Source: Duganella sp. Root1480D1 (GTDB taxonomy: Bacteria; Pseudomonadota; Gammaproteobacteria; Burkholderiales; Burkholderiaceae_D). Taken from it: a stretch of 64,000 bases of DNA. Below are positions 21,502-59,316 of this stretch, piece by piece (the first letter of the stretch is position 1; each line of letters opens with the position of its first letter). Below the pieces are notes generated by a model that was given only the letters and a program-made list of their open reading frames with translations, searched no databases and was not told the origin of the DNA. The DNA lies in contig NZ_LMFZ01000010.1 of the NCBI RefSeq assembly GCF_001427305.1, positions 1 to 64,000 on the forward strand, read 5' to 3'. Position numbers and translations under genes: made by a program.

Positions 21502-22293
21502 ATGCGCAAACGCAATAACAAATCCATCCTGATCAAGACGCCCGACCAGGTCGAGCTGGCCCGCGTGGCCGGCCAACTGGCGGCCGACGTGCTGACCTTC
21601 ATCGCGCCGCACGTCAAGCCGGGCGTCTCGACCGCCCAGCTTGACCAGCTGTGCAACGACTACATCGTCCACACCCAGAAAGTCATCCCGGCCAACGTCG
21701 GCTACGGCGGCTTTACCGGCACCGTCTGCACCTCGGTCAACGAGGTAGTGTGCCACGGCATCCCGTCGGCCAAGAAAGTGCTGAAGGATGGCGACATCAT
21801 CAACATCGACGTGGCCGTCATCAAGGATGAATGGTTCGGCGACACCAGCCGCATGTACTACGTCGGCACGCCGTCGAAAGCGGCGCAAAAGCTGTGCGAA
21901 GTGACCTATGACGCGATGTGGGCCGGCATCCGCGCGGTCAAGCCGGGCAATCGGCTGGGCGACGTCGGGCATGCGATCCAGAAGCTGGCCGAAGCGGCCG
22001 GCTACAGCGTGGTGCGCGATTACTGCGGGCATGGCATCGGCATGGTGTACCACGAAGACCCGCAGGTGCTGCATTACGGGCGGCCGGGCACCGGCCTGCT
22101 GCTGGAGCCGGGCATGGTGTTTACCATCGAGCCGATGATCAACGCGGGCAAGCACGCCACGCGCGCGCTGCCGGATGGCTGGACGGTGGTGACGGCCGAC
22201 AGGTCGCTGTCGGCGCAGTGGGAGCATATGGTGGCGGTGACCGAGACCGGGTTCGACGTACTGACGTTGGCGCCGGGCGAACAAAACCGGTAA
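21502..22293 (+). CDS. map: Type I methionine aminopeptidase
   Basis: 263 residues, full length. It removes the N-terminal Met from nascent proteins. The dimetal ligands are visible: two Asp in INIDVAVIKDEWFGDTSRM, His in YCGHGIGMVYHE, Glu in FTIEPMINAG and Glu in QWEHMVAVTE. The last residues and the TAA (22291-22293) fall in AAAACCGGTAAA, the start of the palindrome at 22283-22374, so the C-terminal QNR is element-derived. Confidence 0.96.
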   Translation: MRKRNNKSILIKTPDQVELARVAGQLAADVLTFIAPHVKPGVSTAQLDQLCNDYIVHTQKVIPANVGYGGFTGTVCTSVNEVVCHGIPSAKKVLKDGDIINIDVAVIKDEWFGDTSRMYYVGTPSKAAQKLCEVTYDAMWAGIRAVKPGNRLGDVGHAIQKLAEAAGYSVVRDYCGHGIGMVYHEDPQVLHYGRPGTGLLLEPGMVFTIEPMINAGKHATRALPDGWTVVTADRSLSAQWEHMVAVTETGFDVLTLAPGEQNR

Positions 22294-22374
22294 AGCTGCC
22301 GGGTCTGACACCGGCCTGCGGCGGCCGCGTATCAGTGTCTGACCCTGCGGGTCAGACACTGGTTTACCGGTTTT
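22283..22374. repeat. Gene-end palindrome, AAAACCGG family, convergent junction
   Basis: Ends AAAACCGGTAAA (22283-22294) and TTTACCGGTTTT (22363-22374) are perfect inverted repeats; between them GTGTCTGACC and GGTCAGACAC form a second hairpin (22335-22359) and a further GGGTCTGACACC copy lies at 22300-22312. It fills the gap between map and the barstar-like gene, and the stop codons of both (22291-22293 and 22373-22375) use element sequence. Probably also a bidirectional terminator. Confidence 0.85.
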
Positions 22375-22690
22375 AGCGCAAGCTCAGCCTCAACGCCGGC
22401 TTCTCGCCATAATCGTCATAGCGCTCATTGATGCCGCCGACGCAAAAGCTAATCTCTTCCAGCAAATCCGCCGGCATCTTCGCCGCATCGGTAATAACGA
22501 TCTCCAGCACCTCATTCGGCTTGAGCCGGAACTTCGTCATATTGTCTTCATCGCGCAGGTAGGACAGGCAGTCCACCCAGGCATCGATGGTCGCGCTGTA
22601 GCCCGGCGGGAACCCCAGTTCCGCCTGGCAGGCAGCGTGGAACGCCGCTTCATCGCCGATCGCGGCGCCGTTTAATGTGGCAATCGCCAT
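22373..22690 (-). CDS. Barstar-family protein (ribonuclease inhibitor)
   Basis: 105 residues matching the barstar fold: GFPPGYSATIDAWVDCLSYL corresponds to the inhibitory helix region of barstar, whose Asp residues contact barnase. No barnase-like RNase gene lies nearby. Its ATG overlaps the exbD TAA as TAATG (22688-22692), so it is translated with ExbD as the last gene of bamE-dapB-exbB-exbD. Barstar-like proteins outside toxin systems may neutralise foreign or related RNases; the target is unknown. Confidence 0.8.
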   Translation of the reverse strand: MAIATLNGAAIGDEAAFHAACQAELGFPPGYSATIDAWVDCLSYLRDEDNMTKFRLKPNEVLEIVITDAAKMPADLLEEISFCVGGINERYDDYGEKPALRLSLR

Positions 22691-23112
22691 TATTTCTTTT
22701 CCTTCGGATCGGTGACGAAACCAAGACGGGTCAGGCCATGCGACTGCGCCGCCGCCATCACCTGCGCCACCACTTCATAGCGGGTATCCTTGTCGGCCCG
22801 CAGCTGCAACTCCGGCTGCTGCGGCAAGCCCGCCGCCTCGGCCAGGCGCTGATCCAGCTCCCCTGCCTGCAAGGCATCGTTATTCCAGTAGACCGTGCCC
22901 GCGGCATCGATGGCCAGCGTCACGGTGTCGGCTTCCTGCTGCAGCGCCTTGGCCTGCGCCTTGGGCAGCTCCAGTTGCACCGCATTGGTAAACATCGGCG
23001 CGCTGATGATGAAGATCACCAGCAGCACCAGCATCACATCCACCATCGGCGTGACGTTGATGTCAGCCATGGATTCCTTCTGCCGGTGATGGTTGAAGGA
23101 GCCGAATGCCAT
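22690..23112 (-). CDS. exbD: Biopolymer transport protein ExbD
   Basis: 140 residues with one N-terminal membrane helix after KESMADINVTPMVDVMLVLL; the Asp in PMVD is the proton-path residue of ExbD/TolR proteins. The C-terminal periplasmic domain follows (TVTLAIDAAGTVYWNNDA). With ExbB it forms the proton-driven motor that energises TonB; tonB lies at 58582 with TonB-dependent receptors. TolR is an alternative assignment. It starts 4 bases after exbB. Confidence 0.88.
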   Translation of the reverse strand: MAFGSFNHHRQKESMADINVTPMVDVMLVLLVIFIISAPMFTNAVQLELPKAQAKALQQEADTVTLAIDAAGTVYWNNDALQAGELDQRLAEAAGLPQQPELQLRADKDTRYEVVAQVMAAAQSHGLTRLGFVTDPKEKK

Positions 23113-23116
23113 CCGT

Positions 23117-23773
23117 TCAATCCCTGGCCAGGTAAGCGTGCAAGTCGTGCGCGAAGGCGTCGAGCTCGGACATGGTGATGCGGTTGATGCGGTTAAAACC
23201 GTTATACGCCAGCACCGCAGGAATTGCCACGGTCAGCCCGACGCCGGTCATGATCAAGGCCTCGCCCACCGGCCCGGCCACCTTGTCGATCTGCACCGTG
23301 CCCTGCGCCGACACTGCCGCCAGCGCATGGTAGATGCCCCACACGGTGCCCAGCAGGCCGACAAACGGCGCGGTCGAGGCGATCGACGCCAGCAGCGTCA
23401 AGCCGGACTCCAGCCGGGTGGTCGACACATGGATCGCATCGCGCAGCACGCGCGTGACCTGCTCGGAGCGTCCCATCTCGGCGGCAATGCTGCCGTTCCT
23501 GGCATGCGCCACCTGGTGCGCGCCGGCCTGCGCCACGGCCGCGAAGATGCGTTCCTGGTCGCGCACTGCCATCAGCGCCACGCCATCGGCCACCGTCGGC
23601 GCGTCCCAGAACGCCTGCACCACCGGCGCCGCGCGCCGGATGCGCCACGCAGCCCAGCCCTTCCACAGGATGAAGAACCAGGACGCCAGCGACATCGCCA
23701 ACAGCAGGTAAGCCACGGCGTGGCTGATCGCGTCGCTGCGCTGCCAGTAGCTGGCGAAGGTAAAGTGCTCCAT
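23117..23773 (-). CDS. exbB: MotA/TolQ/ExbB proton channel protein
   Basis: 218 residues with three membrane helices (about 14-35, 112-140 and 155-180) and the family core STAPFVGLLGTVWGIYHALA. It pairs with ExbD to couple proton flow to TonB. The ATG at 23773 overlaps the dapB TGA by one base (TGATG); longer frames upstream run through dapB and were rejected. Confidence 0.88.
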   Translation of the reverse strand: MEHFTFASYWQRSDAISHAVAYLLLAMSLASWFFILWKGWAAWRIRRAAPVVQAFWDAPTVADGVALMAVRDQERIFAAVAQAGAHQVAHARNGSIAAEMGRSEQVTRVLRDAIHVSTTRLESGLTLLASIASTAPFVGLLGTVWGIYHALAAVSAQGTVQIDKVAGPVGEALIMTGVGLTVAIPAVLAYNGFNRINRITMSELDAFAHDLHAYLARD

Positions 23774-24582
23774 CAGCCGTTCAGGCCCAGCACGTCGTAC
23801 ATATCGTACAAGCCGCTCTTCTTGTCGGCCAGGAATTGCGCGGCGCGCAGCGAACCGTTGGCGTAATGCTGGCGCGACGACGACTTGTGGCTGATTTCGA
23901 TGCGTTCGCCCTCGGTGGCAAACATCACGGTATGGTCGCCGATGATGTCGCCGCCGCGCACGGTGGCAAAGCCGATCGAGGACGGGTCGCGCGGGCCGGT
24001 CACGCCTTCGCGCGCGAACACGCCGCACTGCTTCAGGTCGCGCCCCAGCGCGTCGGCAATCACCTCGCCCATTTTCAGCGCGGTGCCGGACGGCGCGTCG
24101 ACCTTGTGGCGGTGGTGCGCTTCGATGATCTCGATGTCGTAGCCGAGGTCGAACTGCTTGGCCGCAAATTCCAGCAATTTCAGGGTGACGTTGACGCCCA
24201 CGCTCATGTTCGGCGCGAACACGATCGCCGTGCGCTTGGCCGCTTCAGCGATGGCCGCCTTGCCAGCTTCGTCGAAGCCGGTGGTGCCGATCACCATCTT
24301 CACGCCATGTTCGGCGCAGTAGGCCAGGTGGGCCAGGGTGCCTTCCGGGCGCGTGAAGTCGATCAGCACGTCGGCGCCGGCCAGGCCGCTGGCCAGGTCG
24401 GCGGTGATGGCCACGCCGGCCGGCTGGCCGGTAAAGGCGGCGGCATCGCTGCCCAGGGCAGCCGCGCCCGCGCGGTCCAGCGCCCCGGACAGGCGCGCCT
24501 CGGGCGCCTTCTGCACCGCCTCGATCAACATATGGCCCATGCGGCCGCTGGCGCCGGCGATGGCGATATTCAGTTGCGTCAT
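23773..24582 (-). CDS. dapB: 4-hydroxy-tetrahydrodipicolinate reductase
   Basis: 269 residues. NAD(P)-binding [14 protein letters not shown] at the N-terminus and the catalytic [15 protein letters not shown] motif identify DapB, which makes tetrahydrodipicolinate for lysine and meso-diaminopimelate. It lies between bamE and exbB in one probable transcript. Confidence 0.97.
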
Positions 24583-24608
24583 TGCTGTTTCCTTAATGCT
24601 CTTGAAAC

Positions 24609-25160
24609 TTATTGCTTGGTGCCCGATTCCTGGCCGCCCGGCAGCGGCGCCTTGCCCGGCGCCAGGTTGCCCTTGGCATCCTCGGCCTTCTTGAACTCCT
24701 TGATCGGGCCGGCGATGCGCGCGATGTATTCCTGCTCGGTCGGCAGGTTGCCGCCCTCGAAGCTCGCCACCTTGTCGTCCTTGTCGAAGAACACCACCAC
24801 CGTGCTGGTGGTCAGCTCGCCATTGCCCTTGGCCAGGCGGAACGGGTAATCCCAGCGCTGGCCGTGGAAGGCATCGGCCATCAGCGGCGTGCCGAGCAGG
24901 AACTTGACCTGGTCCTTGGTCATGCCGTTCTTGAGCTGGGCCAGCATTTCCCTGGAGACGAAATTGCCCTGCTGGATGTCGGGCCGGTAAGGCGAGAAGA
25001 ACCAGAAGAACTTCTGCGTCTTGGTGATCTGGGTGGTCTGGGCCCCCTGTGAGGCTTCCACCGGGGCCACGCTGGCCGGCTGGCTGGCGCAGGCCGCCAA
25101 CAGGGCGGCGGCCAGCAGCGGAGTGCTACGTTGCAACAAAGACAGCGGGGTCAAACGCAT
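24609..25160 (-). CDS. bamE: Outer membrane protein assembly factor BamE
   Basis: 183 residues (start at 25160). Lipoprotein with lipobox LLAAC, then the SmpA/OmlA domain ([40 protein letters not shown]). It stabilises the BAM complex. A second in-frame ATG at 25169 is only one base from the GAGG ribosome-binding site, so 25160 is preferred. The C-terminal tail is Gly/Pro-rich. It is divergent from fur, the conserved betaproteobacterial arrangement. Confidence 0.92.
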
Positions 25161-25188
25161 ATTATGCATACCTCAATTCCGTGAGCAG

Positions 25189-25220
25189 AAGTGCCTAAAA
25201 CGCTATATCATAAAGCACTT
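25189..25220. promoter_or_regulatory. bamE-fur intergenic region with inverted repeat
   Basis: AAGTGC (25189-25194) and GCACTT (25215-25220) are a 6-base inverted repeat with a 20-base AT-rich centre that contains a possible fur -10 (TATCAT, 25206-25211). It may be an operator shared by the divergent bamE and fur genes. It does not resemble the Fur box. Confidence 0.3.
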
Positions 25221-25242
25221 CCCGCAACTGACGTTAGCAAAC

Positions 25243-25671
25243 ATGAGTAACAGCCCCACCGACCTGAAGGCTTCCGGCCTGAAGGCTACCCTGCCGCGCC
25301 TGAAGATCCTCGATATTTTCCAGAGCAGTCCCGTGCGCCATCTGACGGCGGAAGACGTGTACAAGCTGCTGCTGGCCGAGAACATGGACGTCGGCCTGGC
25401 CACCGTGTACCGCGTGCTGACCCAGTTCGAGCAGGCCGGCTTGCTCAACCGCAACCATTTCGAGAGCGGCAAGGCGATTTTCGAGCTCAACGAAGGCTCG
25501 CACCACGACCACCTGGTCTGCCTCGATTGCGGCCGGGTGGAAGAATTCGTCGACGAAGAAATCGAAAAGCGCCAGCAAAGCATCGCCGCCGAGCGCGGCT
25601 TCAAGATCGCCGAGCACGCGCTGGCCATCTACGGCAGCTGCACCAAGCTCAACTGCCCGCACAAGCACTGA
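25243..25671 (+). CDS. fur: Ferric uptake regulator Fur
   Basis: 142 residues. Winged-helix DNA-binding domain ([35 protein letters not shown]) and metal-binding C-terminus with HHDH (87-90), Cys93, Cys96, Cys133 and Cys138. It represses iron-uptake genes with Fe(II); Fur-box-like sites occur in this window at 58238-58256, 58302-58320 and 62319-62337. The TGA stop overlaps the first base of the palindrome at 25671-25738. Confidence 0.97.
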
Positions 25672-25738
25672 AAAATAAATGGGGACGTACCCCATTTTTC
25701 TGCGAAAAATAAATGGGGTACGTCCCCATTTATTTTTT
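25671..25738. repeat. Gene-end palindrome, ATAAATGGGGACGTACCCC family
   Basis: Arms 25671-25693 (AAAAATAAATGGGGACGTAC and on) and 25715-25738 are inverted repeats around a 21-base centre; AAAAATAAATGGGG also occurs twice directly (25671 and 25705). The block GGGGACGTACCCC is itself palindromic. It fills the 65-bp gap between convergent fur and hrcA, and the TTA at 25737-25739 is the hrcA stop codon. Sequences of this kind are typical of REP elements mobilised by RAYT transposases, which is inference; no RAYT gene is present here. Confidence 0.85.
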
Positions 25739-26747
25739 AGTGGTTGCTGAGCGCGTTGGACAGCAGCCGCGACGTGATATCGACAATCGGGATCACCCGC
25801 TCGTAAGCCATGCGGGTCGGCCCGATCACCCCCAGCGTTCCCACGATCTTGCCGTTGGCCTCATAGGGCGCGGTCACCACGCTCATTTCATCCATCGGCA
25901 CCAGCTGCGACTCGCCGCCGATGAAAATCTGCACGCCGGAAGCCTTGGACGACACGTCCAATAGCTGCATCAGCCCGGTCTTCTGCTCGAACAGGTCGAA
26001 CATCGCGCGCAGCGAGCTCATGTTCGAAGACAGGTCGGCCACCGACAGCAAGTTGCGCTCGCCGGCGATCACCATGTCGTCGGCCGATTCGGCCATGGCC
26101 TCGCTGCCGGCCTCCACTGCCGCCTGCATCAGGCGCCCCATATCGTCGCGCAACTGGCGCAGCTCGTGCTGCAGGCGCCCGCGCACATCCTCGAACGACA
26201 GCCCGGAATAGTGCTGGTTGATGAAATTGGCCGACTGCTGCAACTGGGCCGGCGTGTAATCGACATCGGTCAGCAGGATGCGGTTTTGCACGTCGCCGCC
26301 GGGCAGCACGATCACCAGCAGCACCCGCTTCTCGCCCAGGCGCAGGAATTCGATCTGCTGGAACACCGACTCGTGGCGCGGCGCCACCACCACCCCGGCA
26401 AACTGGGTCAGCGAGGACAGCATCTGGGCCGCGTTGGCAATCAGCTTTTGCGGCTGCGCCACCTGCAAGCCGGCCTGCACCGCGCGCTCGTCGATATGCT
26501 GCACCGTCAGCAGGGTATCGACAAAGATGCGGTAGCCGCGCGGGGTCGGCACCCGGCCCGCCGAGGTATGCGGACTGGCCACATAGCCCTGCTCTTCCAG
26601 GTCGGCCATGATGTTGCGGATGGTGGCCGGCGACAGCTCCAGCCCGGAAATCTTGGACAGGGCGCGCGAGCCCACCGGCTGGCCATCGGCGATGTAACGC
26701 TCGACCAGGGCTTTGAGCAGGGTTTGGGCACGGATATCGAGATGCAT
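25737..26747 (-). CDS. hrcA: Heat-inducible transcription repressor HrcA
   Basis: 336 residues from the ATG at 26747. N-terminal winged helix ([40 protein letters not shown]) followed by the GAF-like HrcA domain. It represses groESL/dnaK-type operons through CIRCE sites. No CIRCE element was seen in its upstream region. It starts 4 bases after the HAD phosphatase stop and is probably co-transcribed with it. Confidence 0.95.
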
Positions 26748-26751
26748 AGGT

Positions 26752-27447
26752 CTATTCTGCCAACTGTTGTTCCAGCCACGCAAGCAGTTCATCAAGCGTG
26801 GCGCAAATCGCGTCCGGCTGTGGCGCGCCGTCCGGCAGCGCGGCGCCGCGCCGGTTCATCCACACCGCGCGCAGGCCGGCCGCCTGCGCGCCCGCCACGT
26901 CCAGCGCCAGGTCGTCACCGACGTACACCGCATCGTGCGGCGCCACGTCCAGCGCCTGGCAGGCGGCGCGGAAAATACCGGGCGCCGGCTTGGCCGCGCC
27001 GAAACGGGCGGCCGCCAGCGATACCTCGAAATGGTGGGCCAGGCCGATCACTTCGAGGTCGGCATTGCCATTGGAAATGGTGCCCAGTTGCACATGCTGG
27101 CGCAGCTTGAGCAAGCCCGGCAGCACATCGTCATACGGCGTCACCGCATTGCGCGCGGCGAAGAAATGGGCCATGGCGCCATCGACCTTGGCCGCATCCG
27201 CGCCGGCCGCGGCAAAGGCCGCGTGCAGGCTGGCGCGCCGCAGCTGGCCCAGGTCGACCAGCAGTTCCGGCCGGGCGGCCGCCAGGTCGGCGCGGTGCGC
27301 GCGCAAGGCCTCGATCGACCACTGCGCCGCCACTTGCGGCGCATGGGCCGCCAGCCAGGCATGCAGCGTCAGTTCCGCCTCGGCGATGACGGGCGCGATC
27401 GGCCACAGGGTGTCGTCCAGGTCGAACAGGATGGCTTTCGGCTTCAT
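26752..27447 (-). CDS. HAD-family hydrolase
   Basis: 231 residues. Motif I FDLDDTLW with the nucleophile Asp, motif II TISNG, a Lys near KPAPGIF, and motif [19 protein letters not shown]; the cap is helical (C1 type). It resembles YigB/phosphoglycolate phosphatase-like HAD enzymes that act on small phosphates; substrate not determinable. It is upstream of hrcA and divergent from the lipoprotein pair. Confidence 0.88.
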
Positions 27448-27583
27448 GGGCGCATTGTACCGCGCCGCGGTTGCAAGCTGTTACAAGGGAAAAGCTGGCC
27501 AAATCGGCTAAAGAAGTAGCAAATGCACTAAAATAGGCGCCGATTTGTCCGCGCCACGGGCGCAACCGACTGGAGAATGTGGA

Positions 27584-28192
27584 ATGAAGAGTAAGTATCT
27601 GTCTGCCGCCGCCGCGCTGCTGTGCGTCGCCGGACTGGCCGCCTGCGGCGGCAAGGGCAATGGCAGCATCCAACTGGGCGTGAACGTGATCGGCATCGAC
27701 CGTACCGGCCTGGTGCTGCAGAACAATGGCGGCGACGACCTGGAAATCACCGGCACCAGCAATGCCCAGTATTTCTTCAAGACCTTGATGGCCCCGGACG
27801 CGCCGTTCAGCGTGACGATCAAGACTACCCCGGACAATGTGAGCTGCGTGCTGGCCAACAATACCGGCAAGATCAATTACTACACCTACCTGCAAAGCAC
27901 CGTGACCTGCACGCCTGACCCGTACCCGCTGGGCGGCACCATCAGCGGCCTGACCGGCAGCGGCCTGGTGCTGGCCAACGGCGCCCAGACGGTGGGCGTG
28001 GCCGCCAACGGCAACTGGCAGTTCGGCAGCCCGATCGGCAACGGCAGCGTATACGGTGTCACCGTGCTGAGCCAGCCGACCAACCAGACCTGCACCGTGA
28101 CCGGCGGCACCAGCGGCAACGGCAGCGGCACCATCAAGGCCGACAAGACGAATATCAATGTCAACTTGACCGTGGTTGTTACCTGCAAATAA
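27584..28192 (+). CDS. Two-repeat lipoprotein, first of a tandem pair
   Basis: 202 residues with signal peptide and lipobox LAAC. The mature protein has two copies of a roughly 85-residue domain with the pattern GLxxxGLVLxNxG ... YxVTVxxQPxxxxCxV ... VTC (for example GGTISGLTGSGLVLANGAQT, LSQPTNQTCTV). The domain is common in exported proteins of Burkholderiales, with conserved Cys pairs that could form disulphides; function unknown. RBS GGAGAATGTGGA fixes the ATG at 27584. The next gene is a paralogue. Confidence 0.75.
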   Translation: MKSKYLSAAAALLCVAGLAACGGKGNGSIQLGVNVIGIDRTGLVLQNNGGDDLEITGTSNAQYFFKTLMAPDAPFSVTIKTTPDNVSCVLANNTGKINYYTYLQSTVTCTPDPYPLGGTISGLTGSGLVLANGAQTVGVAANGNWQFGSPIGNGSVYGVTVLSQPTNQTCTVTGGTSGNGSGTIKADKTNINVNLTVVVTCK

Positions 28193-28204
28193 GAAAGAAT
28201 CCAG

Positions 28205-28783: not shown

Positions 28784-28888
28784 TATAAGCAAATGGAATG
28801 ACTGGAATTCCAAAAATAAATTGGAAAGATATGCCGCAACGCAGCATACTTACTCCCGTCTCCTCCACTTCTTAACAGAAATGGATTC

Positions 28889-31333: not shown

Positions 31334-31402
31334 TGAAAGTCGGGGTCAGCTCCGGCAATCGGACACTTTGTGTCCGATTGCCGGAGCTGACCCCGACTTT
31401 CA
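31334..31402. repeat. Perfect 33-bp-arm gene-end palindrome
   Basis: Arms 31334-31366 and 31370-31402 are perfect inverted repeats around TTT. The arms begin TGAAAGTCGGGGTCAGCTCC. It fills the 68-bp gap between the glycosyltransferase (stop 31331) and rsmA. The TCA at 31400-31402 is the rsmA stop (TGA on the minus strand), and both element ends read TGA outward-in. It would form a very stable hairpin in either transcript. Confidence 0.9.
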
Positions 31403-42120: not shown

Positions 42121-42168
42121 GAGCCCGTGTCACACCCTGGGGTCACACCCCAACTGTGACACGGGCTC
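42121..42168. repeat. Gene-end palindrome, GCCCGTGTCAC family, unit 1
   Basis: GAGCCCGTGTCAC and GTGACACGGGCTC are inverted at the ends; GGGGT-CACA-CCCC is a second inner hairpin. With unit 2 (42187-42230) it forms a head-to-head pair, since the second unit is the imperfect reverse complement of the first. It lies in the convergent gap between the solute-binding protein gene and pntB. Confidence 0.8.
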
Positions 42169-42186
42169 ATCATCTGCTACGGTTGG

Positions 42187-42230
42187 GCCCGTGTCACTCT
42201 CGGGGTGTGACCCCAAGGTGTGACACGGGC
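42187..42230. repeat. Gene-end palindrome, GCCCGTGTCAC family, unit 2
   Basis: GCCCGTGTCAC and GTGACACGGGC ends with GGGGTGTGACCCC in the middle. It is the imperfect reverse complement of unit 1 and lies 18 bases from it, the arrangement known as a BIME in REP families. It ends 10 bases before the pntB stop codon. Confidence 0.8.
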
Positions 42231-42240
42231 TGGGCCGTGG

Positions 42241-49760: not shown

Positions 49761-49783
49761 TATATTCAAATTCACACTAAGAC

Positions 49784-51392: not shown

Positions 51393-53670
51393 ATTTCACC
51401 TCCGCGGAATACGAGCGTTGTGGGTAAGGGTGGAAGTTCCAGTACTTGTAGTTGTTGGCATTGTCGATGCCGAAAGCGGCACTCCAGTGCTTGTCGATGC
51501 GGTAGCGCAGGCGCGCATCGACCGTGAAGTACTTGCTGGCGCCCTGGTAGGCGAAGCCATTGATGTCGGTGTTGTCCAGCGTCGAGTACTGCTTGCCGCT
51601 GTAGCGTGCGGCCAGCGTGGCGCTCAGCTTGTCGTTGACGCGGTAGGTCGCTACGGCGCTGGCGCGCCATTCAGGAATGCGCGGCTGCCACTTGCCTGCG
51701 CTGGCCGGGAATTTCTCGTTGCGCTTGATCCTGGAGTCGGTCCAGGTCAGGCTGGCCTGCATGTCCAGACCCTCGACCAGCACGTTCTCGTTAGACCAGG
51801 CAGTTTCCAGGCCATGGGTGCGAATCAGGTCGACGTTCTGCACATTGGTTACATTCGGCGTGACCAGCACATTGGTCTGCGAATACAACGCGTCGCGGTT
51901 GCGTTCGAAGAAAGCGGTGATGCGCAAGGCGGAATTGCCGACCAATCGCTCGGCGCTCAGTTCCGTGGTCCAGGAACGCTCGGGTTTCAGGTTCGGATCG
52001 TTGTTGATCAGGGTGCCGGTATTGTTGATGCCGCCCTGGTACAACTCGGACACGGTCGGCATGCGAATCGCGCGGCCGGTGGAAGCTTTCAGCGTCCAGT
52101 CCTCATTGGCCTGGAAGGCCAGCGCCGCCTTGGGCGAGACGAAATTGTCGCTGCGTTTGGCATGGCGCACCACGGTGGTCGCATTCGCGGTTTCGCCGTC
52201 GCGCCCTTCCCAATGTTCGAAGCGTGCGCCGAGCACGGTCTTCCAGTCTTGCGACAGTTTCCAGGTGTCTTGCAGGTACAGGCTGTCGATGCTGGTGCGG
52301 CCGGAGAAAGCCTGGTTGCGCGCACCGGGATCGCCATTTTGCCAGTCCATCGTGCCGCGTTCGACGGTGGATAGCTTGTAGGCTGCGCGCTGGTAGCCAA
52401 AGTCGAAGATATGCGTGCCGCGCATGCCGTCCGGGCGATAAACGCCTTTCAGCGACAGCGTATTCCAGCCAGTGCCGCCCTGGTCGACGATGCGGCCGGC
52501 GCCGCCGCTGGCGGCCGCCGGGCGCGCCGTGGTCGGCGCGCGCAGGATGTCGCGGCTGTAGTCATACAGGCTGGCGGCCACCTCCCAGTCGAATACGCCC
52601 TTGGTGTTGCTCTTCACCGTCAAGCCGTGCATCACGTGGCGCAGTTCTTCCTTGCTTGAATTGAAGTCGGACGCTGCCAGCGTGAAGCTGCGGCCGTCGA
52701 TCAACACCGGGCCGCTGAACACCGGCTTGCCCGCCACATCGCGCAGGTAGGTATTGGGCGAGCCGCTGGAATCGTTCTGCCACCAGCCCAGCGAGTAGCT
52801 GGCGCGCACGGTCGGCGAAAAGTCGTATGCCAGCTTGATCTTGGCGTGGTCCTGCACCGTGTTGTACTGGGTCGCCGTGCCAAGGACGTAGATGTCGCGG
52901 TTGGTGCGGTCCTTGTCGGCCACGGCGCCGCTGACCGGCACGCCTTTGCCATTCAGCGTGCCGCTGGCCATGGCGCGCGTGGTGTAAGTCTGCGGCTGGC
53001 CATCGCTGTCGGTGCGGTTCACGCTGATAAACCACGACCAGGCGCCGTGGCGGTCGCCCAGCGACATGCTGGACTGGCGCGCGGTCGAGGTCATGTTCGT
53101 GTTGTACAGCTCAAACGGCTGGCGCACATAGGCCACCCGGGCATGCGCTTCGAATTGCTTCGGCATGCGTGTCACGTAGTCGACCACCGCCCCGACCGAG
53201 TTGCCGCCATATGCTGCCGAGAACGGGCCGTACAGTACGTCCACGCGCTCGATTTCCTCCGGCGCCACCATGCCCCAGCGCGGCGCGAACGTGGCGCCGT
53301 TACCGAGGTAGTTCGACAGCAGCACGCCGTCGGCGTACACCGCAGAACGCGCGCTGTTGCCGGTTCCGGAAGCGCGGGTGGACAACACGGCGTGATTGTA
53401 GTCGCCGATATAACGCTTGCGCACCAGCAGGCTAGGCAGGTATTTCAGTGCGTCTTCCGCATCGCTGGCGTTGACCTGTTCCTCGATCTGGGTGCGGGTG
53501 ATGCCTTCAATCGTGGTCGGGATCTGGGTTGGCAGCGAAGTCGGGTGGTTGCCGGCGATGACGACGGTGCCAACCATCTTGAGCGGCGATTCCCCTTCGT
53601 GATCGGCGAATGCCGGGGCCGAGAAAACGGCCAGCAATGCTGCGGCCAGGGGAATAAGACGGGTGTTCAT
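51382..53670 (-). CDS. TonB-dependent outer-membrane receptor, possibly for copper
   Basis: 762 residues with signal peptide (IPLAAALLAVFSAPAFA). Plug domain (TIEGITRTQIEEQVNASDAE, RASGTGNSARSAVYADGVLL, ERVDVLYGPFSAAYGGNSVG) and a C-terminal barrel ending in VKFDW, an outer-membrane Phe/Trp terminus. Its partner upstream is a DUF2946 protein, a family I associate with copper-responsive receptor loci, so copper or another metal is a reasonable substrate; siderophores are the alternative. Start ATG at 53670. Confidence 0.88.
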   Translation of the reverse strand: MNTRLIPLAAALLAVFSAPAFADHEGESPLKMVGTVVIAGNHPTSLPTQIPTTIEGITRTQIEEQVNASDAEDALKYLPSLLVRKRYIGDYNHAVLSTRASGTGNSARSAVYADGVLLSNYLGNGATFAPRWGMVAPEEIERVDVLYGPFSAAYGGNSVGAVVDYVTRMPKQFEAHARVAYVRQPFELYNTNMTSTARQSSMSLGDRHGAWSWFISVNRTDSDGQPQTYTTRAMASGTLNGKGVPVSGAVADKDRTNRDIYVLGTATQYNTVQDHAKIKLAYDFSPTVRASYSLGWWQNDSSGSPNTYLRDVAGKPVFSGPVLIDGRSFTLAASDFNSSKEELRHVMHGLTVKSNTKGVFDWEVAASLYDYSRDILRAPTTARPAAASGGAGRIVDQGGTGWNTLSLKGVYRPDGMRGTHIFDFGYQRAAYKLSTVERGTMDWQNGDPGARNQAFSGRTSIDSLYLQDTWKLSQDWKTVLGARFEHWEGRDGETANATTVVRHAKRSDNFVSPKAALAFQANEDWTLKASTGRAIRMPTVSELYQGGINNTGTLINNDPNLKPERSWTTELSAERLVGNSALRITAFFERNRDALYSQTNVLVTPNVTNVQNVDLIRTHGLETAWSNENVLVEGLDMQASLTWTDSRIKRNEKFPASAGKWQPRIPEWRASAVATYRVNDKLSATLAARYSGKQYSTLDNTDINGFAYQGASKYFTVDARLRYRIDKHWSAAFGIDNANNYKYWNFHPYPQRSYSAEVKFDW

Positions 53671-53765
53671 GATGCTTCCTTTCCTGTTCTTGCGAGCGAG
53701 GGCCTTGCCACCGCGCCGCCACAGGGCGCGTGCAATGCAAAGCCGGGAGGTACTGCTGCGAAGGA

Positions 53766-54104
53766 TCAGGCGGAAGGTGGGGCGCGCGAAGGAGGCGCGA
53801 AGGATTCCTGCTGCGGCAGCGCTGCGTGAGCCTGCAATGCCGGCTCGGCGCCAGCCGGCAGCAGCAGCGCCAAGGCAAGACTGGCAGGCGGCGGCGGCAC
53901 GGCGGGCAGGTCGGCCTGCACCATGCAATAGCCGCATTTCTGGAGCACGTGGTGGGCTTTCGGCTGTGCGTGGCAATGGGCGACGTTGTTATCGCCGCAA
54001 GCCGCAGCCAGCAACGTGGACAGCGTTGGGGCGGAGACGGCCATCAGCATCGCAAACAGCGCGATCCTGACTATTCCGGCAATCTGTCTCCTGCTCCAGC
54101 CCAC
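53766..54104 (-). CDS. DUF2946-family exported protein
   Basis: About 112 residues with an N-terminal hydrophobic segment. The core CHAQPKAHHVLQKCGYCMVQ has the Cys/His pattern of DUF2946, which suggests metal binding, probably copper. The GTG at 54104 has GGGAG five bases before it; the GTG at 54116 is an alternative start. It lies 95 bases upstream of the TonB receptor gene, likely the same operon. Confidence 0.8.
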   Translation of the reverse strand: MGWSRRQIAGIVRIALFAMLMAVSAPTLSTLLAAACGDNNVAHCHAQPKAHHVLQKCGYCMVQADLPAVPPPPASLALALLLPAGAEPALQAHAALPQQESFAPPSRAPPSA

Positions 54105-54246
54105 GATGGCTCCCACAATGCAATCTCGATAAGTGGCATTGTAGGTACACGTTTGAGGGGGCGATATGCCCTAGATCAAGTTTTTACTTGCCCGCAATGG
54201 GCCGCAACTGATATCGTAAATATTTCAGTTCTGACATCATACATTG

Positions 54247-54531
54247 ATGGATCACCTGCTCGGTATTGAGTTAATAGGCCTCCTGATCGGCCTGTCTTGC
54301 CTGCCCAGTTGGCTGATCGCCAAATGGTATGCAGCGCACGGCGCCCGACTGGCGCTTAGGCGATCCCTTTTCATCAATGGCGTGCTGGCCTTGGTCGGCA
54401 TGTCCCTGCTCACCGGCGCGCTCGCGCTGGAAATGAGGCAGGCCAGGCCTTTGCTCACCTATGCTTTCGGCTTGCTGGGCATTGTGGGCCTGCTGGTCTC
54501 GGCAGCGCTGCACGCTTTCGACGACGACTAA
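54247..54531 (+). CDS. Small membrane protein of unknown function
   Basis: 94 residues with three membrane helices (about 5-24, 38-60 and 68-88) and a DDD end. No family recognised. It is divergent from the DUF2946 gene and converges with the sigma-factor gene (4-base overlap of the coding ends). A TTG at 54244 precedes the ATG. Confidence 0.6.
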   Translation: MDHLLGIELIGLLIGLSCLPSWLIAKWYAAHGARLALRRSLFINGVLALVGMSLLTGALALEMRQARPLLTYAFGLLGIVGLLVSAALHAFDDD

Positions 54532-55397
54532 ACCGCCGCCGGCAGGCGTATCCAATCGACGGCCTCCATCGCATAGGGCGCAAACAGGAAATCGCGAATG
54601 CCGGCAAGCTGGCTGCCCTGCCATGCCAGCAGGACAAAGTGGGCCGGCTTGTCCACGGTGCCATGGCGGTCGAAGACCAGCATTGCCATTCGCCCTTCCA
54701 CGGCGCCGAGTTCAAAGCACCATTTCGGTTCGGCGGCGTAGCGGGTGAAATATGGATTGACGCCGTCGCGTCCCGCCAGCCGCAGCCGGTTGACCAGCTC
54801 CAGTTGCACCTCCGCCGCCAGCATGGCGCGGATGGCATCGAAATCGCCGTCCTGGAAAAACCGGACATAGCGTGCGATTCGATCCCGGTTCGCTGTCGTC
54901 GGCAAAGGCACGCGCGCGTCGGCCACCTGCCCTGCCAACTGGTGCAAGGCGGCGCGCCCGCGCTGCAATGCCGATTTGGCGGCGGCCGGCGTGCACCCGG
55001 CAATCTCCGCCACTTCCTCCACTGAGTGACCCAGGACGTCTTTCAGGATCACGGCGCAGCGCTGCAATTCCGGCAGTTGCATGAAGGCCTGGAAGCCTGC
55101 CATGATGATCCCGGCTTCCGGCATGGCGCCGCCGCCCTCCATGTCTTCGGTCAAAGGAACCACATTGCTGCGGGCACGCTGGCGCAGGAAGTCCAGGCAG
55201 GTGTTGTGGGCGATGCGCAGCAGCCAGCCGCCCAGGTTGTCCACCTCCATACCTTCCGCACGCGCACGCAGGGCCTTGACCAAGGCATCCTGCAGCAGGT
55301 CCTCGCCGTCGATTGCCGAACCGGTCATGCGGGCGCAGTAGCGATGCAGCCGCGGCCTGAGTTCCTGCAAGCGTGCTTCGAATTCATCGTTGTTCAT
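54528..55397 (-). CDS. ECF sigma factor with C-terminal SnoaL-like domain
   Basis: 289 residues. Region 2 (RLHRYCARMTGSAIDGEDLL) and region 4 (LPELQRCAVILKDVLGHSVE) of an ECF sigma factor, followed by an NTF2/SnoaL-like domain (about 165-285). This fusion occurs in SigJ-like groups without a separate anti-sigma factor; the tail controls activity. It overlaps the upstream ABM monooxygenase gene by 4 bases (ATGA). Confidence 0.88.
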   Translation of the reverse strand: MNNDEFEARLQELRPRLHRYCARMTGSAIDGEDLLQDALVKALRARAEGMEVDNLGGWLLRIAHNTCLDFLRQRARSNVVPLTEDMEGGGAMPEAGIIMAGFQAFMQLPELQRCAVILKDVLGHSVEEVAEIAGCTPAAAKSALQRGRAALHQLAGQVADARVPLPTTANRDRIARYVRFFQDGDFDAIRAMLAAEVQLELVNRLRLAGRDGVNPYFTRYAAEPKWCFELGAVEGRMAMLVFDRHGTVDKPAHFVLLAWQGSQLAGIRDFLFAPYAMEAVDWIRLPAAV

Positions 55398-55684
55398 GCG
55401 ATATGTCCCAGGACGGAATCAAAACTCGCCAGCTCACGAATGCGCGGGAAGCAGGCCTGCATGCGCGGGTCGGCCCGCATGGCGTCGACCGCTTGCGGCG
55501 AATCCCATTCCGAGTAAATGGTCACGCTGCTGCCGTCGAGCGCCGCAATCAAGCGGCTTTCGCGCCAGCCCGCAAGCTTGCTGGCGACTGCGTCGATATT
55601 CGCCTTCAGCAGCGCAAGTAGCGCCGCCTGGTTGCCAGGTTGGACCTTCAGGTGATTGATGAGGATAACAGTTCCGGTTGTCAT
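55394..55684 (-). CDS. Antibiotic biosynthesis monooxygenase-type protein (ABM fold)
   Basis: 96 residues. A small ferredoxin-like ABM domain (TVILINHLKVQPGNQAALLA, SEWDSPQAVDAMRADPRMQA). Such proteins oxygenate or cyclise small aromatic substrates or simply bind them. It precedes the ECF sigma gene with an ATGA overlap and is likely co-regulated with, or sensed through, the SnoaL tail. Confidence 0.8.
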   Translation of the reverse strand: MTTGTVILINHLKVQPGNQAALLALLKANIDAVASKLAGWRESRLIAALDGSSVTIYSEWDSPQAVDAMRADPRMQACFPRIRELASFDSVLGHIA

Positions 55685-55757
55685 GATGTGCCTCCTTGGT
55701 TTCGACACAACTAAGACGAACCGGCGATCCAGAACGGATCGCGGTGCAGGAATTTTT

Positions 55758-56033
55758 TTAGCGCTGGACGTTCAGCATGATGACGCGGCGCGCCGGGCCG
55801 CCTTCCGACGGCGGCGCTGGCGGAGCGGGTGAGTCGCCGCACCCGCCACAGGAACCGCAGCCGCTGCTGCAGCTCGATTCGGTGTTGAAGAAGCGTGCCA
55901 GCTTGTCCTGCGACAGGCCGCGGCGCGACAGGGCATGGACGATTTGCTGGCGCCATGCGGCAGGCAGGTATTTCCTCGCCGCGTGCAGCGCGGCCGCGGC
56001 CACCACGATCCCGACGATGATTTCCTGCCACAT
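55758..56033 (-). CDS. Cys-rich membrane protein of the feo operon
   Basis: 91 residues: one N-terminal membrane helix (QEIIVGIVVAAAALHAA), a basic middle and a Cys-rich segment SSCSSGCGSCGGCG that could bind iron or an Fe-S cluster, followed by a Pro-rich tail. It lies 3 bases after feoB and matches the FeoB-associated Cys-rich proteins. It may assist iron delivery; mechanism unknown. Confidence 0.75.
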   Translation of the reverse strand: MWQEIIVGIVVAAAALHAARKYLPAAWRQQIVHALSRRGLSQDKLARFFNTESSCSSGCGSCGGCGDSPAPPAPPSEGGPARRVIMLNVQR

Positions 56034-56036
56034 GAC

Positions 56037-57926
56037 TCAGCCTCCCAGCGCCAGGGCGACGCGGTAAGTGATGAAGGTGGCGGTGTACGCCAGTACGAAC
56101 ATATAAGCCGCCATCATCAGCGGATATTTCATGGAATTGGTTTCGCGGCGCACCACGGTCAGCGTGGACAGGCACTGCGGCGCGAATACGTACCAGGCCA
56201 GCAGCGCCAGCGCGGTCGGCAAGCCCCAGCTGGCCTGGATCACCGGTGCCAGCGAATTGGCCAGCTCGTCGCCGGTCTGCGACAGCGCATACACGGTGCC
56301 CAGCGCGCCCACCGCCACTTCCCGTGCAGCCATGCCCGGCACCAGCGCAATGCAGATCTGCCAGTTGAAGCCGATCGGCGCGAAGATGAATTCCAGCGCG
56401 CGGCCCAGCATGCCGGCCACACTGTAATAGATCGGCGGATGGGTGGCCCCTTCCGGCGCGCCAGGGAAGCTGGACAGGGCCCACAGCAGCACCATCAGGG
56501 TCAGGATGGTGGTGCCGACGCGCATCAGGAAGATCTTGGCGCGCTCGTACAGGCCGATCGCCAGGTTGCGCATATGCGGCCAGTGGTAGGCCGGCAGCTC
56601 CAGCATCAGCGGCTGGTTGCGCTTGGCGCGCATCGAGCGCTTCATGACCCAGGCCACAGCCATGGCGGAGATGATGCCGGCAAAGTAGAGGCAGAACAGC
56701 ACCAGGCCTTGCAGGTTAAAGAAGCCCCACACTTCGCGGTCCGGGATGAAGGCGGCGATCACCAGCGCATATACCGGCAGTCGCGCCGAACATGTCATCA
56801 GCGGCGCGATCATGATGGTGACGATGCGGTCGCGCGGGTTCTGGATGGTGCGCGCTGCCATGATGCCCGGAATGGCGCAGGCGAACGAAGAAAGCAGCGG
56901 GATGAAGGCGCGGCCCGACAGGCCGACGCCGCCCATCAGTCGGTCCAGCAGGAAGGCCGCGCGCGGCAGGTATCCGCAATCTTCCAGCACCAGGATGAAG
57001 AAGAACAGGATCAGGATCTGCGGCAGGAACACCAGCACGGCGCCGACACCGCCCAGCACGCCGTCCACCAGCAGGGAGCGCAGCACGCCGTCAGCCATAT
57101 GGGCCTTGACCAGCGCGCCGAGATGCTCGACGCCGCCGCTGATCATATCCATCGGCACCTCAGCCCAACTGAACACGGCCTGGAACACGCAGAACATCAG
57201 CACGGCCAGGATGACCGGTCCCATGAACGGATGCAGCACGAAATGGTCGATCTTTTCGGAACGGTTGCCACGGTCGTCGCTGTCTTTCACCGCGACCGAC
57301 AGGATGCGGCGCACCTCGCGCTGGGTTTCTTCGACGCTCACGGCATCGATGGCGGACAGCGGGTTGGCCACGCTTTCATAGAACGGCCACAGGCCGTCCA
57401 GCGCATCGACCAGGGCCTTTTCGCCGCCGCTCTTCACGGCCACGGTTTCCACCACCGGCATGCCCAGTTCCTGCGACAGCCTGGCCGCATCAACCACGAT
57501 GCCGCGCTTTTTGGCCACGTCGACCATGTTCAGGCACAGCACCATCGGCAGTCCAAGGCGCTTGATTTCCAGGGCCAGGCGCAGGTTCAGGCGCAGGTTG
57601 GTGGCATCGACCACGCACACCACCACGTCGGGCGAACGCTCGCCTTCGCGCAGGCCGGCGACGACGTCGCGCGTGATCATTTCATCCGGCGTGTGGGCCG
57701 ACAGGCTGTAGGCGCCCGGCAGGTCGAGCAGGCGGTACTGGTTGCCGGCGCTGGAGGTGAACTGCCCTTCCTTGCGCTCGATGGTCACGCCGGCGTAGTT
57801 GGCGACCTTCTGGCGTGCGCCGGTCAGGCGGTTGAACAGTGCGGTCTTGCCGCAATTCGGGTTGCCCAGCAGGGCGACCATTGGCTGCTGCGTGATGGCT
57901 TGCGCGGCCTTTTCTACTGCACCCAT
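56037..57926 (-). CDS. feoB: Ferrous iron transporter FeoB
   Basis: 629 residues. GTPase domain with P-loop GNPNCGKT (21-28), DLPG (68-71) and NMVD (133-136), then a spacer region and a C-terminal membrane domain with gate helices (AFIPLLSSFACAIPGIMAAR). It imports Fe(II). It is shorter than E. coli FeoB (773). feoA starts upstream at 58203 and the Cys-rich protein gene follows. Confidence 0.96.
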   Translation of the reverse strand: MGAVEKAAQAITQQPMVALLGNPNCGKTALFNRLTGARQKVANYAGVTIERKEGQFTSSAGNQYRLLDLPGAYSLSAHTPDEMITRDVVAGLREGERSPDVVVCVVDATNLRLNLRLALEIKRLGLPMVLCLNMVDVAKKRGIVVDAARLSQELGMPVVETVAVKSGGEKALVDALDGLWPFYESVANPLSAIDAVSVEETQREVRRILSVAVKDSDDRGNRSEKIDHFVLHPFMGPVILAVLMFCVFQAVFSWAEVPMDMISGGVEHLGALVKAHMADGVLRSLLVDGVLGGVGAVLVFLPQILILFFFILVLEDCGYLPRAAFLLDRLMGGVGLSGRAFIPLLSSFACAIPGIMAARTIQNPRDRIVTIMIAPLMTCSARLPVYALVIAAFIPDREVWGFFNLQGLVLFCLYFAGIISAMAVAWVMKRSMRAKRNQPLMLELPAYHWPHMRNLAIGLYERAKIFLMRVGTTILTLMVLLWALSSFPGAPEGATHPPIYYSVAGMLGRALEFIFAPIGFNWQICIALVPGMAAREVAVGALGTVYALSQTGDELANSLAPVIQASWGLPTALALLAWYVFAPQCLSTLTVVRRETNSMKYPLMMAAYMFVLAYTATFITYRVALALGG

Positions 57927-57930
57927 TGCT

Positions 57931-58203
57931 TTATTCCGGTTGGATCGAGATCAGCGCTGCTTCGAAGCGGCGCAAGGCAAACGTGGCATTGCCGACTTTA
58001 ATGGCGAGCGGTTCGCCGCCTGGCAGGCCACGCTTAAGCATGCGGATGCGCTCACCGGGTACAAAGCCCAGCTCCATCAGGCGGCGCGCCAGGTCGGCGC
58101 CGTCCTCGGTATCTTCAGGATTGCCCGGAGCGATATGGATCACCGTTCCGCTTTGCCCCACCGGCAGGGAATCAAGCTTGATCAGGGTAGGAGCAAGGGT
58201 CAT
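57931..58203 (-). CDS. feoA: Ferrous iron transport protein FeoA
   Basis: 90 residues, SH3-like: LPVGQSGTVIHIAPGNPEDT and MELGFVPGERIRMLKRGLPG. Regulates or assists FeoB. It lies 4 bases upstream of feoB. A Fur-box-like site and the divergent bfd promoter lie in the 158 bp upstream. Confidence 0.95.
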   Translation of the reverse strand: MTLAPTLIKLDSLPVGQSGTVIHIAPGNPEDTEDGADLARRLMELGFVPGERIRMLKRGLPGGEPLAIKVGNATFALRRFEAALISIQPE

Positions 58204-58237
58204 GGCGAACTTTCCAGGGCGAAATACAACCTCGCCA

Positions 58238-58256
58238 TTATAAATGAGAATTGTTT
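58238..58256. promoter_or_regulatory. Fur-box-like site near feoA
   Basis: TAAATGAGAATTGTTTGC matches the AATGATAATCATT core at about 10 of 13 positions. It is 35 bases upstream of the feoA ATG and would repress the feo operon with iron. Confidence 0.5.
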
Positions 58257-58267
58257 GCAGATACGGC

Positions 58268-58295
58268 TTGCATTGTATCGCTGTTCGGGTAGAAT
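58268..58295 (+). promoter_or_regulatory. bfd-tonB promoter
   Basis: TTGCAT (58268-58273), 16 bases, TAGAAT (58290-58295). Transcription would start near 58302, inside the Fur box at 58302-58320, a classical repressor geometry. Confidence 0.5.
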
Positions 58296-58301
58296 GGGAA
58301 A

Positions 58302-58320
58302 CGTAATGATAATGATTCTC
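58302..58320. promoter_or_regulatory. Fur box at the bfd-tonB start site
   Basis: GTAATGATAATGATTCTC matches the 16-base core AATGATAATCATTATC at 14 positions, the best Fur box in the window. Position over the predicted transcription start predicts iron repression of bfd and tonB. Confidence 0.75.
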
Positions 58321-58361
58321 AATAACGGAATCGCAATCTTAGCCAGAAGGTAATCTCTGAA

Positions 58362-58571
58362 ATGATCGTTTGTGTCTGCAACAACATCTCTGATCGAGAA
58401 ATCCGACAAGCCATAGATATGGGTATCAGCTCCATGGACGAGTTGCGCGAAGCGCTCGGCGTGGCCACCTGCTGCGGCAACTGCCTCAGCTACGCGGTGG
58501 AAGTGCTGGACGAACATCTGGGCAGCGGCATTCAGGAGACTGTACTGAAGCGCCCATCACTGACCGTGTAA
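58362..58571 (+). CDS. bfd: Bacterioferritin-associated ferredoxin
   Basis: 69 residues with Cys4, Cys6, Cys38 and Cys41 (VCVCNN and CCGNC), the [2Fe-2S] ligands of Bfd. It reduces ferric iron in Bfr so that it can leave the store; bfr is at 62446. Fur box upstream; tonB follows 10 bases later. Confidence 0.95.
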   Translation: MIVCVCNNISDREIRQAIDMGISSMDELREALGVATCCGNCLSYAVEVLDEHLGSGIQETVLKRPSLTV

Positions 58572-58581
58572 GGAGCGCTTC

Positions 58582-59262
58582 ATGCAATCGATGACATTCC
58601 CGGCTGGCGGCGATTTCGGCGCCAGCGTTGGCAGCGACAAGATGACCAAGATCGCAGTAGTCGTCGCTTTGCATGCAGCCCTGGGTTATGCCTTTATCAA
58701 CGGCACGATGCACCGCCTCGTGGACCGTATTCCTGAAGTCGTCAACGTCACTTTTGTGGCGCCGCCACCACCTCCCCCGCCAGCCTCGCAGCCAAAAACG
58801 GTAGAAATCGCGCAGAAAGCGCCTTCGATCACCCCGCCGCCACTGCCGATGCTGCCGATCGTGATCGAAAACACCATCACCCAGCCGCCTTCGCAACCTC
58901 GCGTTGCCGAGCCCGCACCCGTGACGCCGGTTGCCGTGGCACCGGTGGCCGCTACGCCGGCGGCACCCGCCGCGCCGACTGGCCCGCGCGTGATTTCGGC
59001 TGTTGAATATATCCGTGCGCCGCAGCCGGTCTACCCGTCGGTGTCGCGCCGCATGGGCGAACAGGGCGTGGTGACCTTGCGCGTGCTGGTGAATGAAAAG
59101 GGTTATGCCGAGCAGGCATCGATCCAGAAGTCTTCCGGCTCCAACAACCTGGACGAAGCAGGCCGCGCCGCCGTCATGCGCGCGCTGTTCAAGCCGTATG
59201 TGGAAGATGGCAAGGCGCAGCCAGTGTATGTGATGGTGCCGATTAATTTCCAGATGTCCTGA
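58582..59262 (+). CDS. tonB: Energy transducer TonB
   Basis: 226 residues: one N-terminal membrane helix (KIAVVVALHAALGYAFINGT), a Pro-rich spacer (VAPPPPPPPASQP, APVTPVAVAPVAAT) and the C-terminal TonB domain (APQPVYPSVSRRMGEQGVVT, LRVLVNEKGYAEQASI). It transmits ExbBD energy to outer-membrane receptors. ExbB/ExbD are encoded at 22690-23773. The TGA is followed directly by the palindrome at 59262. Confidence 0.95.
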   Translation: MQSMTFPAGGDFGASVGSDKMTKIAVVVALHAALGYAFINGTMHRLVDRIPEVVNVTFVAPPPPPPPASQPKTVEIAQKAPSITPPPLPMLPIVIENTITQPPSQPRVAEPAPVTPVAVAPVAATPAAPAAPTGPRVISAVEYIRAPQPVYPSVSRRMGEQGVVTLRVLVNEKGYAEQASIQKSSGSNNLDEAGRAAVMRALFKPYVEDGKAQPVYVMVPINFQMS

Positions 59263-59316
59263 AAACCGGCAAACCAGTGTCTGACCCGCAGGGTCAGACA
59301 CTGGTTTGCCGGTTTT
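59262..59316. repeat. Perfect 26-bp-arm gene-end palindrome, AAAACCGG family
   Basis: Arms 59262-59287 and 59291-59316 are perfect inverted repeats around GCA, starting AAAACCGGCAAACCAGTGTC. It fills the whole 52-bp gap between convergent tonB and piuC; its first base is the last base of the tonB TGA, and TTA at 59315-59317 is the piuC stop. A-tract, hairpin, T-tract architecture predicts bidirectional termination. Confidence 0.9.

What the first reader, a model, noticed from the sequence alone, without database searches (positions are those of the whole stretch)
22283..59316. Every convergent gene junction wider than 8 bp holds a long palindrome
The window has ten convergent junctions. Five have gaps over 8 bp: map/barstar (79 bp), fur/hrcA (65), glycosyltransferase/rsmA (68), solute-binding protein/pntB (129) and tonB/piuC (52). 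All five hold strong palindromes from four unrelated families. The other five junctions overlap or have gaps of 7-8 bp and lack a full palindrome. Three further palindromes lie at co-directional junctions (11953, 13280, 20278). This looks like a genome-wide gene-end system, perhaps REP-type elements co-opted as bidirectional terminators.
Basis: partly seen in the sequence, partly recalled or inferred. Interest (0 to 1): 0.72.

Follow-up and report, generated by a model that had tools for sequence, protein, structure and literature searches.

The report
Mobile palindromes parked at gene ends
The long palindromes between back-to-back gene ends are copies of several families of tiny mobile repeats linked to their own transposase genes, a known kind of element, and comparison with sister species suggests that they landed in the gaps and may sometimes stand in for ordinary transcription stop signals.

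Summary
The palindromes are real and the gene map is right: ten convergent junctions, five wider than 8 bp, all five holding a palindrome. But "every" holds only in this window: in a 2.06 Mb sample of the same genome 35 of 139 convergent junctions wider than 8 bp hold one of these repeat families. Enrichment is still clear: 35 of 276 convergent, 50 of 1406 co-directional, 4 of 275 divergent junctions. The repeats are RAYT/TIRYT-linked mobile repeats: families A, B, D and C2 each bracket a transposase gene in this genome; family C brackets one in a sister species. The element makes the gap (median residual gap 9 bp). The same junction may be tight, or hold another family or a plain terminator, in relatives. 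Ends are locked to stop codons; family A tails overlap the stop codon in 27 of 34 arms. REP placement after genes, stop-codon donation and GGGGWSAS terminal repeats are already published (PMC3733652, passages). A bidirectional-terminator role is plausible for B and A, weak for C and D, and untested. Verdict: new member of a known kind.

The parts
22333..22361 (.). family A palindrome in the map/barstar convergent gap (a degenerate second arm lies to its left)
   Evidence: the outer tail CCGGTTTTA carries the barstar stop codon (sequence)
25662..25746 (.). family B double palindrome (GGGGACGTACCCC) in the fur/hrcA convergent gap; core 25675-25733
   Evidence: folds to -44.4 and -43.1 kcal/mol on the two strands, T-rich end on both
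31334..31402 (.). family C perfect palindrome (33-nt arms, 3-nt loop) between glycosyltransferase and rsmA; overlaps the rsmA stop codon
   Evidence: 62 exact copies of the 26-mer arm in the whole genome, 0 of the reversed control
42122..42231 (.). family D double palindrome (GTGTCACACC..GGGGTCACACCCC) between the putative solute-binding protein gene and pntB
   Evidence: the same repeats bracket RAYT genes in L003 and L006
59262..59316 (.). family A perfect palindrome (26-nt arms, 3-nt loop) between tonB and piuC; its outer bases belong to the two stop codons
11950..12051 (.). family C2 repeat pair (GGGGTCAGGTCTG) at a co-directional junction
   Evidence: the same repeats bracket the RAYT gene in L004
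13280..13384 (.). family A inverted pair at a co-directional junction; its right tail overlaps the stop codon of the gene 13383-13799
20278..20458 (.). unrelated imperfect palindrome (E), 82-nt arms, single copy in the 2.06 Mb sample; not part of the repeat families

Best explanation
The palindromes are single or inverted-pair copies of short non-autonomous mobile repeats that spread with RAYT/TIRYT (Y1 tyrosine) transposases. Shown: the families are multi-copy, each brackets a transposase gene in this genome or its sister, and copies are present, absent or exchanged at orthologous junctions. Shown: copies sit at stop codons, between the two stops of convergent pairs or between a stop and the next gene's ribosome-binding site. 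Inferred: the transposase inserts or copies them there, and selection keeps those that break neither a coding sequence nor a promoter; a convergent junction offers two gene ends and no promoter. In a compact genome the element itself then creates the wide gap. Inferred and weaker: once in place the hairpin of family B, perhaps also A, can terminate transcription on both strands and so can substitute for a plain terminator.
For: RAYT genes bracketed by their own family: L002 (A), L005 (B), L003 and L006 (D), L004 (C2). NCBIfam REP_Tyr_transpos matches 6 of 6 tested, 2 over the cut-off. Family C arms at G009:C32:186270-186295(+) and 187185-187210(-) bracket a RAYT at 186364-186765. 121 exact copies of GTGTCTGACCC, 0 of the reversed control. 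Of 89 repeat-bearing junctions 35 convergent, 50 co-directional, 4 divergent; expected by intergenic length 13.8, 51.4, 23.8. Stop codon overlaps the tail in 27 of the 34 family A arms that have a gene end within reach (64 arms in all); 18 of 20 such family C arms begin 2-8 bp after a stop (23 arms in all). Gap left without the element: median 9 bp in 35 repeat-bearing convergent junctions, 5 bp in 241 repeat-free ones. Orthologous junctions hold other families, plain terminators or nothing in relatives.
Against: No transposition was observed. The GTAG foot that E. coli-type RAYTs need is missing. Family C has no transposase beside it in the held assembly of this genome. The lock on stop codons can come from target choice or from selection: the base before the A tract of family A is T about as often at ends facing a start codon (15 of 26) as at ends facing a stop codon (21 of 36), which fits donation by element or target but does not decide. 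If one counts 3' ends (two per convergent, one per co-directional junction) the convergent excess is modest: 35 observed, 24.0 expected, p = 0.011. Gene calls are from my own finder; the two arms of a palindrome are not independent.
Confidence: 0.85

Rival explanations
1. The palindromes are kept because they are bidirectional intrinsic terminators; junctions that need termination recruit whichever hairpin is at hand, so families and plain terminators are exchanged while the hairpin stays.
For: Strong hairpins on both strands. fur/hrcA in 25 same-genus genomes, classed by eye: 12 with repeat-type palindromes of at least six kinds, 4 with plain terminators, 1 with both. C34:66478/66574 is family C here and a plain terminator in G009. 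C12:107269/107357 is family A here, a plain terminator in G002. tonB/piuC holds A here, B in G009, another palindrome in G006.
Against: fur/hrcA is tight (gap 15 bp or less, no strong hairpin) in 5 of 25 genomes and wide without a strong hairpin in 3. C12:107269/107357 is tight in G006. Half of the convergent junctions here (137 of 276) have gaps of 8 bp or less. Family D has no U tract, family C three U.
Confidence: 0.35
2. Pure tolerance: insertion is random and only copies in harmless places survive; gene ends are harmless and nothing is co-opted.
For: Depletion at divergent junctions (4 seen, 23.8 expected by length); turnover and empty sites in relatives; published placement between convergent and unidirectional genes in other REP-rich genomes (PMC3733652, passages).
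Against: Copies abut the stop codon even where a longer gap is free: in co-directional junctions the residual gap is 79 bp at the median, yet 14 of the 20 family A arms facing a stop there lie at -3 to -1. That asks for target choice, stop donation or a positional benefit.
Confidence: 0.45
3. Translational effect: hairpins within 15 nt of the stop codon stall ribosomes and lower the upstream gene's output, as reported for E. coli REPs.
For: Distance to the stop codon is within 15 nt for nearly all family A and C arms that face a gene end; the E. coli effect is cited in PMC12306157 (passages).
Against: No expression data here; orthologues keep their ends with very different or no hairpins.
Confidence: 0.2

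Closest known systems
TIRYT / TIRtron repeats (Di Nocera et al. 2013, PMC3733652, passages read)
   Same: Y1 transposase gene bracketed by terminal inverted repeats; repeats also dispersed as a family, often in dimers; GGGGWSAS motif present in C, C2 (GGGGTCAG) and D (GGGGTCAC)
   Different: Five families in one genome; family B (GGGGACGT) does not fit the motif; copies here form long, often perfect hairpins that fill convergent gaps
REPs, BIMEs and REPINs with RAYT transposases (Bertels and Rainey 2011, PMC3116915; Nunvar et al. 2013, PMC3686654; passages read)
   Same: Multi-copy extragenic palindromes, inverted pairs, one transposase per family, gene-end location, replacement of one class by another reported for RAYT loci
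   Different: No GTAG foot seen; lower copy number; stop codon TAA instead of TAG supplied by the tail
Bidirectional intrinsic terminators of convergent genes (Bacillus cereus study PMC5381666, passages read)
   Same: Hairpin with A-rich 5' and T-rich 3' flank in families B and A, shared by two convergent genes
   Different: Repeated, mobile and family-specific; C and D lack a proper U tract

Membership tests
REP/RAYT-type mobile repeats (broad sense) | multi-copy and mostly extragenic | tested here: met
   121 exact GTGTCTGACCC; 92 of 98 repeat clusters in the sample lie in gene junctions
REP/RAYT-type mobile repeats (broad sense) | same repeats flank a Y1 (RAYT) transposase gene | tested here: met
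   A, B, C2, D in this genome; C only in G009; 6 of 6 proteins match REP_Tyr_transpos, 2 of 6 over its cut-off
REP/RAYT-type mobile repeats (broad sense) | presence/absence at orthologous sites | tested here: met
   fur/hrcA, g45916/g47011 and four single sites
classical GTAG-tagged REP | GTAG tetranucleotide at the foot of the hairpin | tested here: not met
   arms and RAYT flanks read by eye show no GTAG at the foot of A, B, C, C2 or D; no systematic scan was run
TIRYT / TIR repeats | transposase gene bracketed by inverted repeats with GGGGWSAS | tested here: met
   C2 and D by sequence; B not met, A only in variants; six named or metagenomic relatives of the C2 transposase, four of them (L245-L248) with C2-like inverted repeats on both sides
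bidirectional intrinsic terminator | stable GC-rich hairpin on both strands | tested here: met
   all five convergent palindromes
bidirectional intrinsic terminator | U tract after the hairpin on both strands | tested here: inconclusive
   B yes, A 4 U, C 3 U, D none (sequences)
bidirectional intrinsic terminator | RNA 3' ends at the hairpin | not testable with these tools
   no transcript data

The most novel reading that the evidence does not exclude
Mobile, RAYT-driven palindromes act as interchangeable bidirectional terminators: at a given convergent junction the hairpin function persists for long times while the sequence is swapped between unrelated mobile families and plain terminators, with the insertion mechanism itself aimed at stop codons.
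Probability: 0.25. Interest if true: 0.65.

Novelty: new member of a known kind. Interest (0 to 1): 0.4.

Why it matters
It explains a striking pattern by a simple cause: in a compact genome the few wide convergent gaps are often wide because a mobile hairpin sits in them. It also offers a natural test bed for how selfish repeats become gene-end signals: one genus, several repeat families with their own transposases, and orthologous junctions that are empty, occupied, or occupied by something else in sister species.

Tried and rejected
A first gene-finder pass lost genes over its rounds and was replaced. A strict inverted-repeat definition (score 13, loop up to 25) found 79 repeats, 69 intergenic, in 27 of 276 convergent, 35 of 1406 co-directional and 4 of 275 divergent junctions; motif-based families gave the counts used in the summary.

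The idea that the palindrome at 20278 belongs to the same system was dropped: BLAST in the sample found only itself. Stop-codon donation by truncating genes was considered: Fur, HrcA, TonB and PiuC end at about the same residue in relatives with other or no elements, so for these genes the element sits at the native end; at C12:107269 the stop lies inside the element and donation by truncation remains possible.

A target-site test for the CT dinucleotide reported for TnpA-REP cleavage (PMC8266576, passages) was not decisive: CT precedes the A tract in 11 of 36 stop-facing and 3 of 26 start-facing family A arms, against 5.4% in intergenic DNA. My crude terminator detector missed some hairpins visible by eye, so its counts (14 plain terminators among the wide repeat-free junctions up to 250 bp) are low.

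Literature: searches gave no paper on these repeats in Massilia or Oxalobacteraceae and none on family exchange at one convergent junction; only the open PMC library was searched, and PMC12306157, PMC3733652 and PMC6006769 hold no mention of Massilia or Oxalobacter in the text searched.
Full report
Check of the observation. Ten convergent junctions; gaps 79, 65, 68, 129 and 52 bp; the rest 8, -15, -8, -4 and -4. Pfam agrees with the names for nine of ten flanking proteins. The inverted repeats are the strongest in the window. A simulated sequence of the same composition gave 1 repeat of this strength where the real 400 kb gave 11.

How general it is. I fetched 2.06 Mb of the 6.60 Mb genome (plus the window), called 1963 genes and searched five repeat families by motif. 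Ninety-eight clusters were found, 92 in 89 junctions. Of 276 convergent junctions 35 hold one, of 1406 co-directional 50, of 275 divergent 4. By intergenic length one expects 13.8, 51.4 and 23.8 (binomial p 5e-8, 0.8 and 1e-7). Counting 3' ends instead, the convergent excess is smaller (35 against 24.0, p = 0.011). Family C alone is in 10 convergent and 1 co-directional junctions; C and C2 together against A gives 13:7 against 10:30 convergent to other, Fisher p = 0.004. The rule 'every wide convergent junction' is not general: 30 of 134 outside the window. With gaps of 51-100 bp, strong inverted repeats lie in 17 of 33 convergent, 3 of 234 co-directional and 0 of 54 divergent junctions.

What the repeats are. 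PF01797 finds seven genes in this genome. One (L001) is a 148-aa IS200-like gene without these repeats. L002 lies between two family A repeats, L005 between two B, L003 and L006 between D, L004 between C2; L007 has A at its 3' end and a GGGACAGAG repeat outside. All six match NCBIfam REP_Tyr_transpos, two over the cut-off. Family C (62 exact arms here, 28 in G009, 2 in G011, 0 in 28 other same-genus genomes) has no gene beside it in this assembly, but in G009 two arms bracket a transposase gene. All 31 same-genus genomes searched have a REP_Tyr_transpos match, 25 over the cut-off. Four Oxalobacteraceae relatives of L004 (L245-L248: Pseudoduganella, Rugamonas, Massilia, Duganella) have the same kind of inverted repeats on both sides. 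I saw no GTAG foot, so these are closer to the TIRYT/TIR class of Di Nocera 2013 than to classical REPs; that class has a GGGGWSAS motif (PMC3733652, passages), met by C, C2 and D.

Where they sit. Family A tails begin (T)AAAACCGG. Of 64 arms 34 have a gene end within reach; in 27 the stop codon overlaps the tail: 25 at -3 to -1 (TAA formed by the tail) and 2 at -11 (the second TAA of the tail). Family C arms begin 2-8 bp after a stop in 18 of 20. In co-directional junctions the other end often lies just before a ribosome-binding site (contexts). Di Nocera 2013 already reports that GTAG REP ends often supply the stop codon and that REPs prefer convergent and unidirectional junctions.

The element makes the gap. 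Without the repeat the 35 convergent junctions would have a median gap of 9 bp, against 5 bp in 241 repeat-free ones. In relatives the junction g45916/g47011, overlapping here, is overlapping or at most 6 bp in 9 of 18 genomes (this one included), 23-39 bp without a strong hairpin in 3, and holds an inverted repeat of score 10 or more in 6.

Exchange. fur/hrcA in 25 same-genus genomes, classed by eye: repeat-type palindromes in 12 (B in five, A in one, GGGGTCGTACCCC type in two, GGGGTCGGACCCC type in one, a C-like one in one, a GTCATTCC type in two), plain terminators in 4, both kinds in 1, wide without strong hairpin in 3, tight in 5. tonB/piuC: nine genomes with the two genes adjacent all hold some hairpin, of several kinds. 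Single sites: C34:66478 family C here, plain terminator in G009; C34:62429 C here, a C copy with a different but again palindromic inner stem in G009, B in G002; C34:4953 A here, another palindrome in G009, B plus a plain terminator in G002; C12:107269 A here, plain terminator in G002, tight in G006; C12:109822 two A here, one in G009; C12:104618 D in both this genome and G009. For rsmA and pntB the neighbours differ between species, so these are weaker cases.

Mechanism. Best supported: RAYT/TIRYT-driven repeats that settle at gene ends (0.85). Whether the settled hairpins terminate transcription is open. Folding is strong on both strands for all five. B has the anatomy of a bidirectional intrinsic terminator, A nearly so; C has three U and D none. 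The exchange with plain terminators speaks for a shared function; the tight, hairpin-free state of the same junctions in other species speaks against a need for one. E. coli REPs within 15 nt of a stop codon lower translation (cited in PMC12306157, passages), a further possible effect here.

Limits. Gene calls are mine; relatives are unnamed; only 17 relatives were seen over the fur-piuC region and single slices elsewhere; no transcript data. That the genome belongs to the Massilia group is inferred from the named relatives.

Noticed in passing
G000 contig ends C1:687546, C2:23, C5:260872, C7:42, C9:33, C10:117693, C20:61, C22:34, C34:424555: Nine single family C arms lie within 100 bp of contig ends, so the assembly seems to break inside family C elements; either perfect hairpins or collapsed longer copies, perhaps with the missing family C transposase.
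   Followed up: no
family C arms in G000 and G009: All listed arms read CTCC in this genome and CTCT in G009, in both arms of each palindrome: concerted, species-specific change.
   Followed up: partly
window 31334-31402 and G009:C25 ortholog; C34:62429: At orthologous family C palindromes the inner stem differs completely between sister species yet stays perfectly palindromic, which suggests arm-to-arm copying at the DNA level.
   Followed up: partly
window 20278-20458: A 181-bp imperfect palindrome between co-directional genes, single copy in the sample; covered by alignments in G009 and G002, missing from the G006 alignment.
   Followed up: partly
L007 1417-2139: This RAYT-like gene reads GELHLLA where the others have the HUH motif (NHFHLL and the like), so it may be catalytically dead (by eye).
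   Followed up: no
L007 flanks: A further repeat type, GGGACAGAG, lies outside the family A copy around this gene.
   Followed up: no
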